Origin: a virus
IMG/VR virus record: IMGVR_UViG_3300050821_004028
Coordinates: 1 to 36,227 of that record
DNA: 36,227 bases
Strand: one strand, 5' to 3'
Shown here: in pieces, positions 2,333-26,250 of the stretch
Position numbering within the stretch: position 1 is the stretch's first letter
Layout of the letters: each line of letters begins with the position of its first letter
Notes under the pieces: model-generated
Databases searched by the model: none
Seen by the model: only the letters and a program-made list of their open reading frames with translations
Told to the model about the DNA's origin: nothing
Made by a program: the position numbers and the translations under genes

Positions 2333-3757
2333 TTAGGTCTTCGTGTTAGATAGTATCTTAGAGGCTTCGGGGCCAGCCCCAGGGCCTATCCGGAACTGCT
2401 CCCTCCCTTGCCAGTAAGAGGCTTGGGGAGGGGCACGGGGGATGCGTCCTACCCCCGTCAAGCGGCCCAATGGCCATAGTACCGCAGCGCCGTAGCCCAT
2501 GGCGTCTCCTGGGTGGGAGTGGATATCTTTGACGGGCTCTCCGGAGGTGATGCCGGTGCGCGTAACATGGTATCGCCAACCGCCTCTAAGTGCTTGCCAC
2601 ACTGCTTGAGCACGCTCCCTATCCACTTGTATAACTCCCCGTCCATTGGTGAGCCGTGTAAGGACCGCTCTAAGAGGTTCAACGCGAGCCTCAGTTTTGA
2701 TAGGTCCACTACGCCAGTCCCCACCAAGCTCTCGCCGGATAAGCCTAACGGGGCTTTGAAGGATGGAAGTTTGCTCTCGTTGCCGTCCCTGATTGTCTCC
2801 AATGTGACGGATGGTGAGCCGCTGGTATCTATCTTTGAGGGTGGGTTTGACCCAATCTTGGATAAGCTCTGCCACTCCGATCCCATCCCCAACAGCGGCT
2901 TCAAGGATGTTCCAGTGTCCGAGCGGGGAGACTTGGGTGATGATGCAGGTGGGGTTGTGGCCGAAGTCCCAGAGGAGAACCAAGTCTGCGCCGCGAACGG
3001 GGATAAGTCCTTGGGAGAGGTGTATACGATCTGACCACTGTGGGGTAACGGCCTTTCCGTCTTGCTGGAACCCGAACTCGCCCTCGACGAAGCGGCGTAT
3101 AAGGTCCGGGCGATGTGCGAGGTTCTTACGCATATCTGCGTAATAGCTTGACGGAAGGTTGGTAGAGTTTTCGGGTTTGCTTGGTTGCCATATAGCATAC
3201 CCCTCAACACCTGGTTGAACAAACTTCTTATACGTCCAGTGTGTCTCATCAGGATTGTTCTCCGCCAGTTTCGCGCTATACCACTTCATGCCATCCTGCC
3301 TGAGGCGGGTCATGGCAATGTCAAAGATCATCTCATCAATGCCCACGCTACCAATAGCGGGTGCCGGCTCATCCATTCCAAAGCCAGCCATGGAGCGAGA
3401 CATAAGCTTAGTAGCGTCATCAGGGCTATCCATTCCCAGAAATCCCACCTTCCCCGATGCCACACCCTCCGCCCAGGTGAACTCCTTGTGGGTCTCATGC
3501 CACTGCCCCATCACTCCTGGCGGGAACCATTTGAAGAACTCTTCCATGGTTGTCTTGCGGATGTTCTCCCAAGTATCTCGGATAAGATACCACTGGGCTC
3601 CGGGATTGTGACGGGTATGGAAGAAGACGCTCCAGGCCAACGCCGCGCTTTTACCCTCACCCATTCGTGAGGAGAATAGGTCAGCGTTTGCGCGGCTCTC
3701 AATAAACTGGCGCTGGACGGGGTTGGGGATGAATTTGAGGATGTGAGCATCAGCCAT
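2333..3757 (-). CDS. terL: Terminase large subunit (packaging ATPase/nuclease)
   Basis: A 474-aa motor protein that drives DNA into the prohead and cuts the concatemer. The N-terminal ATPase domain has a Walker A-like SRMGEGKSA (residues 30-38) and a Walker B GFGMDE (125-130). The C-terminal RNase H-like nuclease domain has LLWDFGHNP (Asp264) and a late acidic motif, HPGDAMGYG. The length is normal for TerL. The frame extends 12 codons upstream, but the ATG at 3757 makes a 1-nt TGATG overlap with the preceding gene and gives the expected N-terminus MADAHILKFIPN. It belongs to the same operon as the small terminase and portal. Confidence 0.93.
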   Translation of the reverse strand: MADAHILKFIPNPVQRQFIESRANADLFSSRMGEGKSAALAWSVFFHTRHNPGAQWYLIRDTWENIRKTTMEEFFKWFPPGVMGQWHETHKEFTWAEGVASGKVGFLGMDSPDDATKLMSRSMAGFGMDEPAPAIGSVGIDEMIFDIAMTRLRQDGMKWYSAKLAENNPDETHWTYKKFVQPGVEGYAIWQPSKPENSTNLPSSYYADMRKNLAHRPDLIRRFVEGEFGFQQDGKAVTPQWSDRIHLSQGLIPVRGADLVLLWDFGHNPTCIITQVSPLGHWNILEAAVGDGIGVAELIQDWVKPTLKDRYQRLTIRHIGDNQGRQREQTSILQSPVRLIRRELGGDWRSGPIKTEARVEPLRAVLTRLTNGRGVIQVDRERAQAVWQALRGGWRYHVTRTGITSGEPVKDIHSHPGDAMGYGAAVLWPLGRLTGVGRIPRAPPQASYWQGREQFRIGPGAGPEASKILSNTKT

Positions 3758-20897: not shown

Positions 20898-21192
20898 TGT
20901 TGAAGAGTACTGGCAGATCAAAGCGCTCTCAGTCGAGTGGCTATACATGCTGCAGAAGCTCAAGGATAGCGTGGAGCCTCCGGAAGGAATACAGCACTGC
21001 ATCATCGGGCAAGGCTGGGACGGTCAGCCACTCTACCTCCTCCATCGAAAGGTCTACACCCCCACCACCCTCGGCGCTGCTTTTGGGTTGACCGAAGAGA
21101 AGCTCCTCTCTTACCGGGGTGTCATCACGCTCAAGAGCAAATACGCGGACGGGCTACCCGAGCCGACTGTGAGCTATTGGGGTACGGCGTGA
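20887..21192 (+). CDS. 101-aa unknown protein
   Basis: Starts MAFDVEEYWQIKALSVEW. The first half is helical and the second strand-rich (GQPLYLLHRKVYTPTTLG, GVITLKSKY). AAGGAGGG precedes the ATG at 20887, and the stop overlaps the glycosylase fusion start as GTGA, so the two are coupled. Function unknown. Confidence 0.7.
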   Translation: MAFDVEEYWQIKALSVEWLYMLQKLKDSVEPPEGIQHCIIGQGWDGQPLYLLHRKVYTPTTLGAAFGLTEEKLLSYRGVITLKSKYADGLPEPTVSYWGTA

Positions 21193-22241
21193 TAACCGTC
21201 CCTCCGCAGCTACCGTCCAGCATCCCCACTCCCATCGCCTTCATCGGCGAGGCTCCGTCATGGGATGAGGAGCTTAAAGGGAAGCCCTTTACCGGCCCCA
21301 GCGGTCGGCTGTTCAACTCACTCCTGCGAAGCGCCGGAATAGACCGGGAGGAATGCCTTGTCACTAATGTCTTTTCTGAGAAACTACCGGATAACGATGT
21401 GGGTAATTGGTGCAGTAATCTTAGAGATGCTCGTGCTGGTGGGTTTAGCGACCTTGCTCCTATTGGGGCTAGCGGCTTTCTTCAACCTGCTTATCGCCAT
21501 CATCTCGATCGGCTTAAAGGGGAGCTAGAGCAATGCCAGCCGAAGGTAGTTGTTCCATTAGGTGGAACTGCCCTATGGTCCCTGACGGGAAGCTCGAACA
21601 TCGGGAGTGTGCGGGGTACCGTGACGGCTGCGACTGCTCTCCTACCTGGAGCGAAGTTGTTGCCAACTTGGCATCCCACCTTTGTGATGAAGCAGTTCAA
21701 GTTCTACCCCGTAGTGGTCGGGGACCTACAGAAAGCCCTACAGGAGAGCAAACGTGACGGCATCTTCCTCCCCACCCGCGAACTCATCCTCGCCCCAACT
21801 CTCGATCAAGTTCGAGATGCTGTTCCTCGCCTACTTGATACAGACCTACTATCCGTTGATATCGAAACGGCCTGGGGACAGATTACTTGCATCGGTTTCT
21901 CTCCAAGCCCTGAATACGGCATCTGCATCCCCTTCGTGGACCGACGTAATCTTAGCCGTTCCTACTGGCCGACTGCAGAAGACGAGGTTAGAGCTTGGTC
22001 CTACTCCCGGTACATACTCGCGAGTGACGTACCAAAGTTGGGACAGAACTTCGGAGGCTACGATTTCTTCTGGCTCCTAGAGAAGTACCGGCTGGCGGTG
22101 AGGAATGTGAAGGAGGATACCCGCCTGATCCATCACGCGCTCTTTGCGGAGCTACCGAAGAGTTTGGAGTTTATGCAGGGTTATGGGACGCAAGGAGCTT
22201 GGAAGTATATGGGTAAGCATAAGGAGAAGAAGGATGACTAA
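21189..22241 (+). CDS. Uracil-DNA glycosylase fused to N-part of proofreading exonuclease
   Basis: A 350-aa fusion. Residues 1-195 match family 4-type uracil-DNA glycosylases: GEAPSWDEE (20-28), PFTGPSGRLF (33-42), VVVPLGGTALWSLTG and LLPTWHPTFV (158-166). The N-terminal CxxC that helps hold the family 4 Fe-S cluster is absent. Residues 215-350 begin a DnaQ-like 3'-5' exonuclease: VDIETAWG (ExoI, 223-230) and LGQNFGGYDFF (ExoII, Asn287 and Asp292). The protein stops before ExoIII, which lies on the polymerase gene downstream. GTG start at 21189 by GTGA overlap; a TTG four codons earlier is possible. Uracil sensing linked to replication is the likely role. Confidence 0.82.
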   Translation: MITVPPQLPSSIPTPIAFIGEAPSWDEELKGKPFTGPSGRLFNSLLRSAGIDREECLVTNVFSEKLPDNDVGNWCSNLRDARAGGFSDLAPIGASGFLQPAYRHHLDRLKGELEQCQPKVVVPLGGTALWSLTGSSNIGSVRGTVTAATALLPGAKLLPTWHPTFVMKQFKFYPVVVGDLQKALQESKRDGIFLPTRELILAPTLDQVRDAVPRLLDTDLLSVDIETAWGQITCIGFSPSPEYGICIPFVDRRNLSRSYWPTAEDEVRAWSYSRYILASDVPKLGQNFGGYDFFWLLEKYRLAVRNVKEDTRLIHHALFAELPKSLEFMQGYGTQGAWKYMGKHKEKKDD

Positions 22242-22545
22242 GGAGTACAGCTTATTAGCTCGACTAGCTGCCCCACATTACAATCCCAGGCGGAATACAT
22301 TCTCCCTTAAAATCCGGTGTGCGGATGATAAAGAGCGTGCCTGGATATGCTCTCATATCCTGGACTGGGGCTTTCCAAAACCGGCAGTGATCTTCACAGG
22401 AGAAGCTTGTTACCTACAAACTGTAGGAGCCGATCATGATGTGTTTGAAAAGGCCAAGGAGCTTCTGCCGTACCTGCCATCTTCTCGAAAAGCGGCAACC
22501 TGGAAAAGAGAGCTAGATGCATATGCCAGTCGTAACCCTCGCTGA
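22234..22545 (+). CDS. 103-aa unknown gene between exonuclease and polymerase parts
   Basis: Starts MTKEYSLLARLAAPHYNP. It overlaps the glycosylase-exonuclease stop by 8 nt and the polymerase start by 29 nt and is in a third reading frame, so it is not an in-frame intein. The layout FSLKIRCADDKERAWICSHI, GFPKPAVIF, CYLQTV and LLPYLPSSRKAA faintly recalls one half of a LAGLIDADG homing endonuclease, but the diagnostic LAGLIDADG helix is not seen. It could instead be a structural linker or an unrelated insertion. Confidence 0.6.
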   Translation: MTKEYSLLARLAAPHYNPRRNTFSLKIRCADDKERAWICSHILDWGFPKPAVIFTGEACYLQTVGADHDVFEKAKELLPYLPSSRKAATWKRELDAYASRNPR

Positions 22546-24127
22546 CGCCCAAGCTATGGCCCCAGGTCAGGAGCGTGACTGGGCCTACAACGCCTTAGAC
22601 GCTACCGGCACCCTAGAGGTAGCGAAGGAGTTGCTGCCTAAACTCAGCCCGCTCCAGGCCCGGACTTATGCTTTTGAGAAGCAACTGCAGGGTCCGGCGA
22701 TGAGTATGATGATGAGAGGGGTGAGGATCAACCAACCGCTACGTGCGGAGATGGTGAAGGAACTCAAGAAGGAGATGCAGAGAGATGAACGAGCCATTGC
22801 AGTTCACGATAAAGTCAAATCCGTCTGGGATGGAAGTGAGCTTGAAACCGGGGTATGCCCTGCTAACTTTGGTAAGCGACACAAGTGGCCAAGAGGCGTA
22901 CCTGATAGCCCCGACAAGCATTGCAGTGCTTGCGGAGTATCTCGGGTTTCGTACAAAGCCTTCGAGGCAACTAGCAGTTCCCAAACCTTCCGCCTGATCT
23001 ACACCCTGCACGGCATTCCGCCGTACATGAATAAGCAAGGGAAGCAAAGCACTGATGACGATACCCTTTCGCGGATTGCTCACAAGCATCCTGAGTTGGC
23101 TGGCTTGTGCGAAAGTATCCTGGCAATTCGCGACAAGCAGAAGCAACTTGGTGCGCTCTCTGCGCGACTTACACCTGATGGCAGGTATCCCTCCTCATTC
23201 AACGTTGGTGCTGCTTGGACCGGCCGCTTTAGCAGCAGCAAGAACCCTTATGGACTTGGAGGGAACCTCCAGAACGTCGCGCCTAAGCATCGAAAGGTTT
23301 TTATCGCTGACCCAGGGATGGAGATGGGTTACGCGGACTACATGCAAGGAGAAAGCAACATTGTTGCGCACCTGTCAGGCGATCCCAAGTATATTGAGGC
23401 GCACAAGGGAGGTGACGTTCACACCTACGTCACCCGCTACGTCTGGCCCGAGCTACCCTGGACCGGCGACCTAAAGAAGGACAAGAAGATAGCGAAGCAG
23501 AACCCACCCTGGGACCTTGCTGAGGGCCACGACTACCGCTTCCAGTGCAAGCGCATTCAGCACGGCAGCAACTACGGCCTCTCGCCTTTCGGCATTTCCA
23601 TGATCGCCAAAATACCGCTGAGAGAGGCGAAGACGGCCTACAATCGGTACATGTCCGAGTTCGACTACATCCCGGCATGGCAGGACTGGGAGCGGAAGAA
23701 TGTCACGGAGCACCGGCCCATCATCAACCCCCTCGGCCGAGTGTGGGTACCCTTCGGCCGCTCTTGGGACAAACACACATGGAGGCAAGCACTCTCCTTC
23801 AAAGCCCAATCTCTACTTGCGGACATTAACGATATCGCCCTCTACTATGTGTGGCTAGACTTAGAGGAGCAGCAGGTACAACTGCTCGCGCAAGTACACG
23901 ACGCGCTTCTACACCAGGTCCCTCAGGGTAGATATGACCTAGAACGAGACCTACTTAAGCGTATGGCAATCCCGGTTCCCGTCACCGACTTCCAAGGCAC
24001 GACGCGTATCATGACCATTGGAGTGGAGAGCGCGACCGGTAAGAACTGGGGCCACAAGTCCCCCGATAACCCGACCGGGATAGATGAGGGACCTATCGCG
24101 GCATACCTACAGGAGCATCCCCTTTGA
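22517..24127 (+). CDS. Family A DNA polymerase (exo remnant plus polymerase domain)
   Basis: A 536-aa protein. It begins with WAYNALDATGTLEV (residues 22-35), the ExoIII motif of DnaQ-like exonucleases, and then carries a full Klenow-type polymerase: RFSSSKNPYG and GNLQNVAP (~237-256), motif A YADYMQGES (Asp274), motif B RFQCKRIQHGSNYG (Arg341, Lys345, Tyr353) and motif C VHDAL (His461-Asp462). Cys114, Cys136 and Cys139 with nearby His residues form a possible zinc site in a thumb-region insertion. The rest of the exonuclease is on the upstream fusion. It overlaps the inserted gene by 29 nt; an ATG two codons later is also possible. Confidence 0.92.
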   Translation: MHMPVVTLADAQAMAPGQERDWAYNALDATGTLEVAKELLPKLSPLQARTYAFEKQLQGPAMSMMMRGVRINQPLRAEMVKELKKEMQRDERAIAVHDKVKSVWDGSELETGVCPANFGKRHKWPRGVPDSPDKHCSACGVSRVSYKAFEATSSSQTFRLIYTLHGIPPYMNKQGKQSTDDDTLSRIAHKHPELAGLCESILAIRDKQKQLGALSARLTPDGRYPSSFNVGAAWTGRFSSSKNPYGLGGNLQNVAPKHRKVFIADPGMEMGYADYMQGESNIVAHLSGDPKYIEAHKGGDVHTYVTRYVWPELPWTGDLKKDKKIAKQNPPWDLAEGHDYRFQCKRIQHGSNYGLSPFGISMIAKIPLREAKTAYNRYMSEFDYIPAWQDWERKNVTEHRPIINPLGRVWVPFGRSWDKHTWRQALSFKAQSLLADINDIALYYVWLDLEEQQVQLLAQVHDALLHQVPQGRYDLERDLLKRMAIPVPVTDFQGTTRIMTIGVESATGKNWGHKSPDNPTGIDEGPIAAYLQEHPL

Positions 24128-24894
24128 GCAGCGGAACCATCAAGATATACCCGACCAGCACCTTCACGGCCTTGATCGGGAGTGACGCCCATTACTGGCC
24201 CGGCAAGCCTAGCACCGGCCATAGGGCATTTGTCAAGTTTACAAAGACCCTCAAGCCCCAAGTGGTGATCCTGAATGGTGATGCGATTGACGCGGCAAGC
24301 ATCTCCCGTCACCCTCCGATCGGATGGGAATACTTTCCTACCGTGAAGCAGGAGTTGGAAGTCACCTATGAGAGGCTGCGCGAGGTAGAGCTTGCCTCTA
24401 CCGGGTCGCGGTTTATCTGGAACCTTGGCAACCATGATGCTCGGTTTGAGACGCGGCTCGCCTCGGTAGTGCCTGAGTTTAAGGGGGTTGCCGGCACCCA
24501 CCTTAGAGATCACTTCACTGCCTGGGAACCGGCCTGGGCTGTAGAAATAGGAGGAAAGAATGGGGCAACAATCAAGCACAGATTTAGCGGAGGTGTTAAC
24601 GCCGCCTACACCAACGCCCTCAAATCCGGCCGGACGACTGTTACTGGACACCTCCATCGTTTGGTCGTTAGACCGGTTTCAGATTACTCCGGGACCAGAT
24701 GGGGAGTTGAAGGCGGAATGTTGGCTGACCGCGACGGACCCCAGTTCCGGGGATATACTGAAAACAATCCCCTTGACTGGCAGCCTGGGTTCATTGTCCT
24801 GACCTGGAAGCAGGGGAAGTTGATGTGGCCTGAGGTGGTGCATGTGGTGAAGGAAGGGCAAGTGGAGTACAGAGGGGAGCTTATCAGTGTTTGA
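24124..24894 (+). CDS. Metallophosphoesterase
   Basis: A 256-aa calcineurin-like phosphoesterase. All the metal-binding motifs are present in order: GSDAH (19-23), NGDAID (51-56), GNHDAR (102-107) and GHLHRL (175-180). Such enzymes hydrolyse phosphodiesters, nucleotides or nucleic-acid ends. TTG start with a TTGA overlap of the polymerase stop and AGGAG before it. It sits next to the polymerase and may act on DNA ends or nucleotides; substrate cannot be read from sequence. Confidence 0.88.
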   Translation: MSSGTIKIYPTSTFTALIGSDAHYWPGKPSTGHRAFVKFTKTLKPQVVILNGDAIDAASISRHPPIGWEYFPTVKQELEVTYERLREVELASTGSRFIWNLGNHDARFETRLASVVPEFKGVAGTHLRDHFTAWEPAWAVEIGGKNGATIKHRFSGGVNAAYTNALKSGRTTVTGHLHRLVVRPVSDYSGTRWGVEGGMLADRDGPQFRGYTENNPLDWQPGFIVLTWKQGKLMWPEVVHVVKEGQVEYRGELISV

Positions 24895-25039
24895 CTTCTG
24901 CTTCTCCCTTGTCATGGCCGCGTCATGTTGTGCGATGGCGGTTAACAACTGGAACTCAAACCCCTCTATGTCCTTAGCCTTCCTGGGGTTTGGGGTTGGG
25001 TATGTAGGACTGGCCGGAATGTTCTGGCCAGGAACGTGA
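24887..25039 (+). CDS. 50-aa two-span membrane protein
   Basis: Read directly, GTG start: MFDFCFSLVMAASCCAMAV, a polar loop (NNWNSNPSM), then SLAFLGFGVGYVGLAGMFW. Two hydrophobic helices predict a hairpin in the inner membrane. GGGGAG precedes the GTG, which overlaps the phosphoesterase stop by 8 nt. Unexpected in a replication operon; function unknown. Confidence 0.65.
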   Translation: MFDFCFSLVMAASCCAMAVNNWNSNPSMSLAFLGFGVGYVGLAGMFWPGT

Positions 25040-25050
25040 AGGAGGAGTGA

Positions 25051-25299
25051 ATGCCGTATATCAAACAGGAAGCGCGAGATGAGATCATCAATGGAAGGAA
25101 GATGGCGGAGAACCCAGGGGAGCTTAACTACCTCCTCTCGGAGTTGGTCTACCAGTACTTCCAAGATAACGGTGGCAACTACCAAGCTATCAATGACGTG
25201 GTAGGTGCCTTGGAAGGAGCGAAGCTGGAGTTCTACCGCAGGGTAGCTGCTCCGTATGAGGATAGGAAGATCGAGGAGAATGGAGACGTGTATGTCTAA
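25051..25299 (+). CDS. DUF6899-like conserved phage protein
   Basis: An 82-aa protein starting MPYIKQEARDEIINGRKM. The pattern GELNYLLSELVYQYFQ, YQAINDVVGALEGAKLEFYR and APYEDRKIEENGDVY matches what I recall of the DUF6899 family, found in many phages without known function. GGAGGAG precedes the ATG, and the stop overlaps the next gene by 8 nt. Confidence 0.75.
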   Translation: MPYIKQEARDEIINGRKMAENPGELNYLLSELVYQYFQDNGGNYQAINDVVGALEGAKLEFYRRVAAPYEDRKIEENGDVYV

Positions 25300-25774
25300 G
25301 GTTTACCTTTCTGGCCCCATCACCGGCCTCACCTATGAGGATGCTAGGTATGGATGGCGGCAGGCCGTAGCAGATGCGATTGAGAATGGTCGCACTACGA
25401 TCCTCTCTCCTATGAGGCATGAGGGTCATCTTGCCGAAATGAAGACGGCAATGAGTGAGGAGGCTCTCCGGAAGTTCCAGCAAACCAACAACCACTTCTT
25501 TTCCCAACCTAAGATGATTGTGGCGAAGGACTTGCTGGACATTGACGAGAGCACCATTGTATTCGTCAACTTCCTCGGCGCGAAGGTTGTGAGTAAGGGT
25601 ACCATTGGCGAGATTGGGTATGCCTATGCTAAGGGGAAGACTATCATCACCGTGATGGAGCAGGAGGGAAACCCCAATGACGGACCCTTTACCCGCGAAA
25701 TGTCCGACACCGTTCTGGATAACCTCGGTGATGCAATCCTTGTTGTTAAGAGCCTCCTTAGCGAAGGGGTGTGA
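25292..25774 (+). CDS. Nucleoside 2-deoxyribosyltransferase-like enzyme
   Basis: A 160-aa protein starting MSKVYLSGPITGLTYEDA. The SGPITG start, a DxxxxIFVNF-type strand (DIDESTIVFVNFLGAK) and SKGTIGEIGYAYAKGK fit the nucleoside 2-deoxyribosyltransferase/DUF4406 fold; the Glu of GEIGYA would be the catalytic nucleophile. Family members move deoxyribose between bases or cleave deoxynucleotides. It overlaps the preceding gene by 8 nt and the dATP/dGTP hydrolase-like gene by 1 nt, so the two form a nucleotide-metabolism pair. Confidence 0.78.
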   Translation: MSKVYLSGPITGLTYEDARYGWRQAVADAIENGRTTILSPMRHEGHLAEMKTAMSEEALRKFQQTNNHFFSQPKMIVAKDLLDIDESTIVFVNFLGAKVVSKGTIGEIGYAYAKGKTIITVMEQEGNPNDGPFTREMSDTVLDNLGDAILVVKSLLSEGV

Positions 25775-26250
25775 TGATGGGCGGACCCTTTATAAATCCC
25801 AACGGACAGGTTATCCGTCCGACCCAGGAGAAAGACCCCCTTGGCAAGACCCAACACGAACTCGGAGCTAAACTGGATAGCGGTAAGGCTCCTCTCTTCC
25901 GTGGCGTCATCGCTTACTTCCCCCGAGCACTTACCAAGGTTGCAGAGCTTTCGGCTTATGGTGCCAACAAGTATGCTTGGAAGGGATGGGAGAAAGTCCC
26001 AGACGGGCCTAACCGCTACTCGGATGCTCTCGGTCGTCATATCACTAAGGAAGCGATCGAAGGCCCATATGACAAGGAGATAGAGAACGACCCCAACTTC
26101 CCGGCGTGTATCCTCCATGCTACCCAGGTGGCTTGGAATGCCCTCGCCCGGTTGGAGTTGATGTTGCGGCAAGGAGTAGGCTCTCGCTCTAAGCTGGTTA
26201 CCCCTCCTCATCCTGAGGTGAGAGAGCAAATGGACCCGAAAGGAGAATAG
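25774..26250 (+). CDS. dATP/dGTP diphosphohydrolase-domain protein
   Basis: A 158-aa protein. The block KLDSGKAPLFRGVIAYFPRA, ELSAYGANKYAWKGWEKV, YSDALGRHITKEAIEG and HATQVAWNALARLE matches the phage dATP/dGTP diphosphohydrolase N-terminal (MazG-like, all-alpha) pattern. Such proteins, called MazZ in 2-aminoadenine phages, hydrolyse purine dNTPs. No purZ-like gene is in this window. Start by TGATG overlap at 25774; GTG 25771 and ATG 25777 are alternatives. Probably shapes the dNTP pool together with the preceding enzyme. Confidence 0.78.
   Translation: MMGGPFINPNGQVIRPTQEKDPLGKTQHELGAKLDSGKAPLFRGVIAYFPRALTKVAELSAYGANKYAWKGWEKVPDGPNRYSDALGRHITKEAIEGPYDKEIENDPNFPACILHATQVAWNALARLELMLRQGVGSRSKLVTPPHPEVREQMDPKGE

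What the first reader, a model, noticed from the sequence alone, without database searches (positions are those of the whole stretch)
21189..24127. DNA polymerase split inside its exonuclease domain by a small inserted gene
Seen directly: ExoI (DIET) and ExoII (N287, D292) lie at the end of a uracil-glycosylase fusion, while ExoIII (YNALD) opens the polymerase gene. A 103-aa ORF in a third frame overlaps both. The three genes use different frames, so this is neither an intein nor a simple frameshift. It looks like a fractured gene whose two parts must reassemble, or a selfish gene invading a conserved site. Inference: an exonuclease rebuilt from two polypeptides.
Basis: partly seen in the sequence, partly recalled or inferred. 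Interest (0 to 1): 0.85.

Follow-up and report, generated by a model that had tools for sequence, protein, structure and literature searches.

The report
Proofreading exonuclease shared by two proteins
In a large, mostly uncultured group of phages, the proofreading part of the DNA-copying enzyme was cut in two inside its active site, apparently once and long ago, and both halves still keep every catalytic residue, so the phage most likely rebuilds its proofreader from two separate proteins while unrelated genes come and go in the gap.

Summary
Window 21189-22241 encodes a uracil-DNA glycosylase (UDG) plus the ExoI/ExoII core of a DEDDy exonuclease; 22517-24127 encodes a family A polymerase that opens with ExoIII; a 103-aa ORF in a third frame overlaps both. 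The split is not peculiar to this genome: 67 representative loci (85% clusters; IMG/VR, Caulobacter phage Kuura, contigs in prokaryote MAGs) carry it at the same place and form one clade (99/99 support in a 49-row tree) nested among unsplit UDG-exo-polymerase fusions, with no re-fusion seen. In 100 split loci every alignable copy of the six ExoI-III residues is kept, and both genes are under strong purifying selection. Modelled, the products match Klenow 324-485 and 468-928. About a quarter of representatives have no insert; the rest carry 1-7 mostly unrelated small genes (four HNH nucleases). The window's 103-aa gene has no detectable relatives and looks like ordinary cargo. Best reading: an ancient, fixed gene fission whose products reassemble into a proofreading polymerase, like known fractured phage genes (Aeh1 nrdA, phage 25 gene 43) but cut inside the proofreading site and fixed across a clade. 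Reassembly itself is inferred.

The parts
21189..22241 (+). UDG plus N-terminal core (ExoI, ExoII) of the 3'-5' exonuclease, 350 aa
   Evidence: Pfam UDG; AF2 model pLDDT 92.3; residues 1-191 match family 4 UDGs, 194-350 match Klenow 324-485
21858..21869 (+). ExoI motif DIET (D224, E226)
   Evidence: translation; D and E kept in 98/98 alignable split loci
22047..22064 (+). ExoII motif N287...D292
   Evidence: translation; N 99/99, D 100/100 in split loci
22221..22226 (+). AAGGAG inside the last exo codons, 7 nt before the ATG of the 103-aa ORF: candidate ribosome-binding site
   Evidence: sequence; SD-like run in 46/64 exo tails against 19% of in-gene windows
22234..22545 (+). 103-aa ORF in the slot between the halves; cargo gene of unknown function
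   Evidence: no relatives; comparable slot genes in 48 other representatives
22517..24127 (+). Polymerase half: ExoIII helix plus family A polymerase, 536 aa
   Evidence: Pfam DNA_pol_A; AF2 model pLDDT 89.9; matches Klenow 468-928, Z 30.3
22586..22600 (+). ExoIII motif YNALD (Y24, D28), the part of the exonuclease site carried by the polymerase gene
   Evidence: translation; Y and D kept in 99/99 alignable split loci

Best explanation
A UDG-exonuclease-polymerase fusion gene, of the kind still whole in related phages, broke once between the codons for ExoII and ExoIII in the ancestor of a large phage clade. Since then one polypeptide carries the UDG and the beta-sheet core of the proofreading exonuclease (ligands D224, E226, D292), and the other carries the last exonuclease helix (Y24, D28) joined to the polymerase. 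Neither half alone holds a complete two-metal site. The UDG-exo subunit is inferred to dock on the N-terminal helices of the polymerase and complete the site in trans. The genes stay neighbours in one apparent operon: the last exo codons double as the ribosome-binding site of whatever gene follows, and in no-insert forms the polymerase start overlaps the exo stop. The gap is a tolerated slot that repeatedly fills with small cargo genes, of which the window's 103-aa ORF is one. Shown: the split, its conservation, its single main origin, the retained residues, purifying selection and complementary folds. Inferred: physical docking and proofreading activity.
For: Same break in 100 loci, none with one half missing where the contig covers both. 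Split clade 99/99, derived within fused outgroups. All six ExoI-III residues kept on both sides. dN/dS mostly 0.02-0.2 in exo gene, ExoIII region and rest of polymerase; distances of the halves correlate, r 0.90. Models match adjoining parts of Klenow. Overlapping start/stop in no-insert forms and an SD in the exo tail. Precedent: split 43A/43B of phage 25 co-purify and are active; split Aeh1 NrdA is fully functional (PMC2988022).
Against: No biochemistry; no complex could be modelled with the tools allowed. Exo tail and polymerase head are low-confidence when modelled alone. Conserved end sequences may partly reflect overlapping signals, not docking.
Confidence: 0.85

Rival explanations
1. 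Origin: a homing endonuclease gene (HNH type) invaded the conserved ExoII-ExoIII region, split the gene, and was later lost or replaced by cargo. Compatible with the best explanation; it concerns how the split arose.
For: HNH_3 genes sit in 4 slots (L007, L049, L058, L081); HNH/seg insertions split nrdA, gene 60 and possibly gene 43 in T4-like phages (PMC2988022); SPO1-group polymerase is interrupted by an HNH gene elsewhere.
Against: HNH slots are few and lie in late branches; 15 of 64 have no insert; L155 shows an independent split by a simple stop and restart; the window's ORF has no HNH, GIY-YIG or LAGLIDADG match.
Confidence: 0.3
2. The halves are joined after all, by RNA splicing, protein splicing or ribosomal frameshifting.
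For: Introns and inteins are known in phage polymerases (SPO1 group; MIJ3, PMC6892783).
Against: Both ends have their own stop, ribosome-binding site and start; no-insert forms leave no room for an intron or intein; exo half ends 12 residues after the invariant W; inserts hold full genes in other frames. Rfam negative but weak.
Confidence: 0.03
3. Proofreading has been lost; the UDG-exo half does something else (for example UDG-based processivity or repair) and ExoIII stays only for structure.
For: UDG subunits serve as polymerase cofactors elsewhere (vaccinia D4, PMC3946371); no direct evidence here.
Against: Every alignable ExoI, ExoII and ExoIII catalytic residue is kept in 100 diverged loci, unlike dead exonuclease domains.
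Confidence: 0.07
4. The 103-aa protein is a required third subunit that bridges the two halves.
For: It lies exactly in the gap and overlaps both neighbours.
Against: No relative at this place in any other locus; most slots hold unrelated genes and 15 of 64 hold none.
Confidence: 0.05

Closest known systems
Unsplit UDG-exonuclease-polymerase fusions (MW202489, Microcystis phage Mel-JY34; more distantly the SPO1 group; solved phiLo polymerase 9qhs)
   Same: Same domain order and homologous domains
   Different: One chain; here two genes with about 16 extra residues at the new ends and a cargo slot
Fractured phage genes: Aeh1 nrdA/mobE, T4 gene 60/mobA, Aeromonas phage 25 and 44RR gene 43 (43A/43B)
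   Same: An essential replication enzyme split within a critical region into two polypeptides that reassemble; small gene between (PMC2988022)
   Different: Those involve other enzymes and few phages; here the cut is inside a proofreading site, is fixed across a deep clade, and the slot mostly holds non-endonuclease cargo
MEP401-type split polymerase (OM43 phages, Zobellviridae)
   Same: Family A polymerase in two ORFs with a small unknown ORF between (PMC10580990)
   Different: Break lies in the polymerase domain just before motif A; the exonuclease is intact
Caulobacter phage Kuura
   Same: Same break, isolated phage, member of the split clade
   Different: Two unrelated small genes in the slot; annotated only as hypothetical protein and DNA polymerase, and the paper's polymerase passages (PMC9959647) mention no split

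Membership tests
Family A DNA polymerase | PF00476 with motifs A, B and C | tested here: met
   E 1.5e-33; motif A D, motif B R/K/Y and motif C D conserved
DEDDy 3'-5' proofreading exonuclease | ExoI DxE, ExoII D, ExoIII YxxxD all present | tested here: met
   all present across the two proteins and conserved in 100 loci
DEDDy 3'-5' proofreading exonuclease | one contiguous domain in one chain | tested here: not met
   ExoI/II and ExoIII lie in different genes
DEDDy 3'-5' proofreading exonuclease | exonuclease activity | not testable with these tools
   needs biochemistry
Fractured phage gene with homing endonuclease (Aeh1 nrdA/mobE type) | coding region split within a functionally critical part, related phages unsplit | tested here: met
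Fractured phage gene with homing endonuclease (Aeh1 nrdA/mobE type) | inserted gene is a homing endonuclease | tested here: not met
   103-aa ORF has no Pfam or PHROG match; HNH in only 4 other slots
Fractured phage gene with homing endonuclease (Aeh1 nrdA/mobE type) | the polypeptides reassemble into an active enzyme | not testable with these tools
   inferred from conservation only
Split intein | intein N- and C-fragments at the break | tested here: not met
   exo half ends 12 residues after the invariant W; polymerase head is about 23 residues; no Pfam intein match
Group I intron | intron RNA fold between exons | tested here: inconclusive
   no Rfam match, but the interrupted SP8 gene is missed too; start, stop and SD signals and no-insert forms argue against
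Family 4 UDG | UDG fold | tested here: met
   Pfam PF03167; Z 21.4 to 1ui1
Family 4 UDG | iron-sulfur cysteines and glycosylase activity | not tested
   not examined residue by residue; no assay

The most novel reading that the evidence does not exclude
The split has turned proofreading into a detachable function: the polymerase works alone without proofreading, and the separately translated UDG-exo subunit switches on proofreading and uracil removal together, so the phage sets its mutation rate or uracil handling by the dose of one subunit. The split would then be selected for, not just tolerated, which would explain why the clade never re-fused the gene.
Probability: 0.18. Interest if true: 0.82.

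Novelty: new variant of a known kind. Interest (0 to 1): 0.63.

Why it matters
Proofreading sites are normally built from one chain. Here a replicative polymerase's exonuclease site appears to be shared by two proteins and has been kept that way through deep divergence (roughly 30-47% identity to the window within the clade) with no re-fusion seen. It gives a natural two-part system for testing how split enzymes reassemble, whether proofreading can be titrated independently of synthesis, and how a broken gene becomes a landing slot for cargo. It also warns annotators: such genes are recorded as 'hypothetical protein' plus 'DNA polymerase' and would wrongly be read as exonuclease-deficient. The papers I could search do not describe it.

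Tried and rejected
Relatives of the 103-aa ORF: none in Pfam, PHROGs, phages (tblastn, E up to 1), IMG/VR or among + strand ORFs of the loci then fetched. Single-sequence scan of IMG/VR with the polymerase found nothing; the four-sequence alignment found 356 relatives. Kuura's two inserts do not resemble the 103-aa ORF. MEP401 was first thought to be the same split; its break lies before motif A. Rfam for introns: negative but uninformative, since the SP8 interruption is missed too. Exo-tail conservation as a docking peptide cannot be separated from the Shine-Dalgarno sequence it encodes. Dassa et al. 2009 on fractured genes was not held.

Full report
WHAT IS THERE. The window is a whole 36,227-base IMG/VR virus record. 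On the + strand lie UDG-exo (21189-22241), a 103-aa ORF (22234-22545) and a family A polymerase (22517-24127), in three different frames. Pfam gives UDG (E 2e-18) and DNA_pol_A (E 1.5e-33), and nothing for the 103-aa ORF. ExoI (D224, E226) and ExoII (N287, D292) are in the first protein; ExoIII (Y24, D28) opens the polymerase.

UNSPLIT RELATIVES. tblastn against phage records found relatives with UDG, exonuclease and polymerase in one ORF (MW202489, Microcystis phage Mel-JY34) and one isolated phage with the same break, Caulobacter phage Kuura, where two other small genes lie between the halves. Aligning them places the break between ExoII and ExoIII.

THE SPLIT IS A CLADE TRAIT. Two profile scans of IMG/VR gave 159 loci. 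With Kuura, MW202489, Mel-JY34 and the window added, 100 were classed as split and 55 as fused, the rest being cut off at contig ends; the best 80 relatives of the polymerase half were all split or truncated. After clustering at 85% identity, a quick tree put 64 of 66 split representatives in one group; the exceptions were L155 and L128 (L128 breaks further downstream). With outgroups and three contigs from prokaryote MAGs added, 67 split rows form one clade at SH-aLRT 100 inside fused outgroups (leaving out L155, the exo-only tree needs 2 changes and the polymerase-only tree 1). A careful mixture-model tree of 49 rows gives 99/99 for the split clade, recovered in 99% of bootstrap trees. So the split arose once in this clade and did not revert among the rows sampled. 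L155 is a second, independent split at the same place: GGAGGATAACCCATG, an in-frame stop with a ribosome-binding site and new start; it rests on one contig.

BOTH HALVES ARE KEPT AS AN EXONUCLEASE. Across the 100 split loci every alignable copy retains the ExoI D and E, ExoII N and D, and ExoIII Y and D residues. Pairs of close relatives show dN/dS mostly 0.02-0.2 in the exo gene, the ExoIII region and the rest of the polymerase. Distances of the two halves correlate (r = 0.90, against 0.96 for fused forms). AlphaFold2 models (pLDDT 92.3 and 89.9) align to adjoining stretches of Klenow: 324-485 for the exo half (Z 13.5) and 468-928 for the polymerase half (Z 30.3). Profile comparison agrees. 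In Klenow the ExoIII residues are Y497 and D501 (established knowledge), so the site spans the break. Neither product alone has the full set of metal ligands; that they dock is inference.

THE JUNCTION. The new ends are conserved: the exo tail reads roughly WKxMR..TIKRD(D/E) and the polymerase head M(K/R)IIxT...W.YNGLD. From the invariant W to the ExoIII Y there are about 20 residues in a fused form and about 36 in the window. The exo tail codons double as a Shine-Dalgarno sequence: 46/64 tails have an SD-like run of at least 4 nt against 19% of in-gene windows, and AGG is 20 of 37 Arg codons there against 148 of 1551 elsewhere. In 15 of 64 representatives the polymerase start overlaps or directly follows the exo stop (ATGA, TAATG). 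In 49 an insert of 155-1804 nt is present; its first gene usually overlaps or abuts the exo stop and its last usually overlaps or abuts the polymerase start. In the window AAGGAG at 22221-22226 lies 7 nt before the ATG of the 103-aa ORF.

THE SLOT. 98 ORFs were called in the 49 inserts, 90 on the + strand, 65 without a relative in other slots; presence or absence of an insert changes at least 11 times on the tree (ORF calling was mechanical, so some small ones may be spurious). Known families among 88 scanned: DUF7768 or nucleoside deoxyribosyltransferase-like (7-9), KTSC (6), DUF1937 (4), HNH_3 (4), dNMP kinase, metallophosphatase. The 103-aa ORF matches none and has no relative in any other slot. 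It is best read as ordinary cargo of unknown function.

ALTERNATIVES. A split intein or frameshift is excluded by the short ends, separate starts and long inserts. An intron is unlikely for the same reasons; the Rfam negative is weak because the SP8 interruption was also missed. Loss of proofreading is hard to square with invariant residues on both sides. Origin by an HNH homing endonuclease is plausible, with 4 HNH slots and the precedents of Aeh1 nrdA/mobE, T4 gene 60/mobA and phage 25 gene 43 (PMC2988022), but L155 shows the same split can arise without an insert. No other DEDD exonuclease turned up among the window ORFs scanned (not every ORF was scanned); the other nuclease found is PD-(D/E)XK. 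The record may be incomplete.

KNOWN OR NEW. Fractured phage enzymes that reassemble are known, and MEP401-type phages have a polymerase in two ORFs with a small ORF between, but cut before motif A with an intact exonuclease (PMC10580990). I found no description of a proofreading domain split between ExoII and ExoIII, nor of a clade in which this is fixed; only open-access full text could be searched. I rate it a new variant of a known kind.

Noticed in passing
L110, L141, L144, L160, L182 (Vibrio phage ABTNL-3, MF497422); nearby second position in L138, L151, L156 and MEP401 (L164): The same polymerase family is split again, repeatedly, just before motif A (after NLQNIPKGDE or after DIRSMLIP), with inserts of 0 to about 960 nt; the SPO1-group HNH interruption (SP8, L188) lies close to the first of these positions.
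   Followed up: partly
L155, about 3230-3260: Independent split at the same ExoII-ExoIII position inside the fused clade: in-frame TAA with GGAGGA before it and a new ATG after it; single contig, so a sequencing error is not excluded.
   Followed up: partly
L180 3319-7158 and L128: Break just after the exonuclease domain (ExoIII stays with the exo half), with a gap of about 1.2 kb in L180.
   Followed up: no
L174 4747-8010 (contig in a Candidatus Nealsonbacteria MAG): Single 1088-aa UDG-exo-polymerase ORF with about 320 extra residues near motif B, a possible intein.
   Followed up: no
window 23897-23905: Motif C reads HDA instead of the usual HDE; A or S at this position throughout almost the whole split clade and in most fused forms.
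   Followed up: no
L165, L166, L167, L168: Split pairs on contigs binned with Terriglobia, Acidobacteria, Phycisphaerae and Actinomycetes MAGs, a weak hint at hosts.
   Followed up: no
window 24124-26250: Downstream genes (metallophosphoesterase, nucleoside 2-deoxyribosyltransferase, dATP/dGTP diphosphohydrolase-like) include families that sit inside the slot in relatives, so slot and flanking operon may exchange genes.
   Followed up: no
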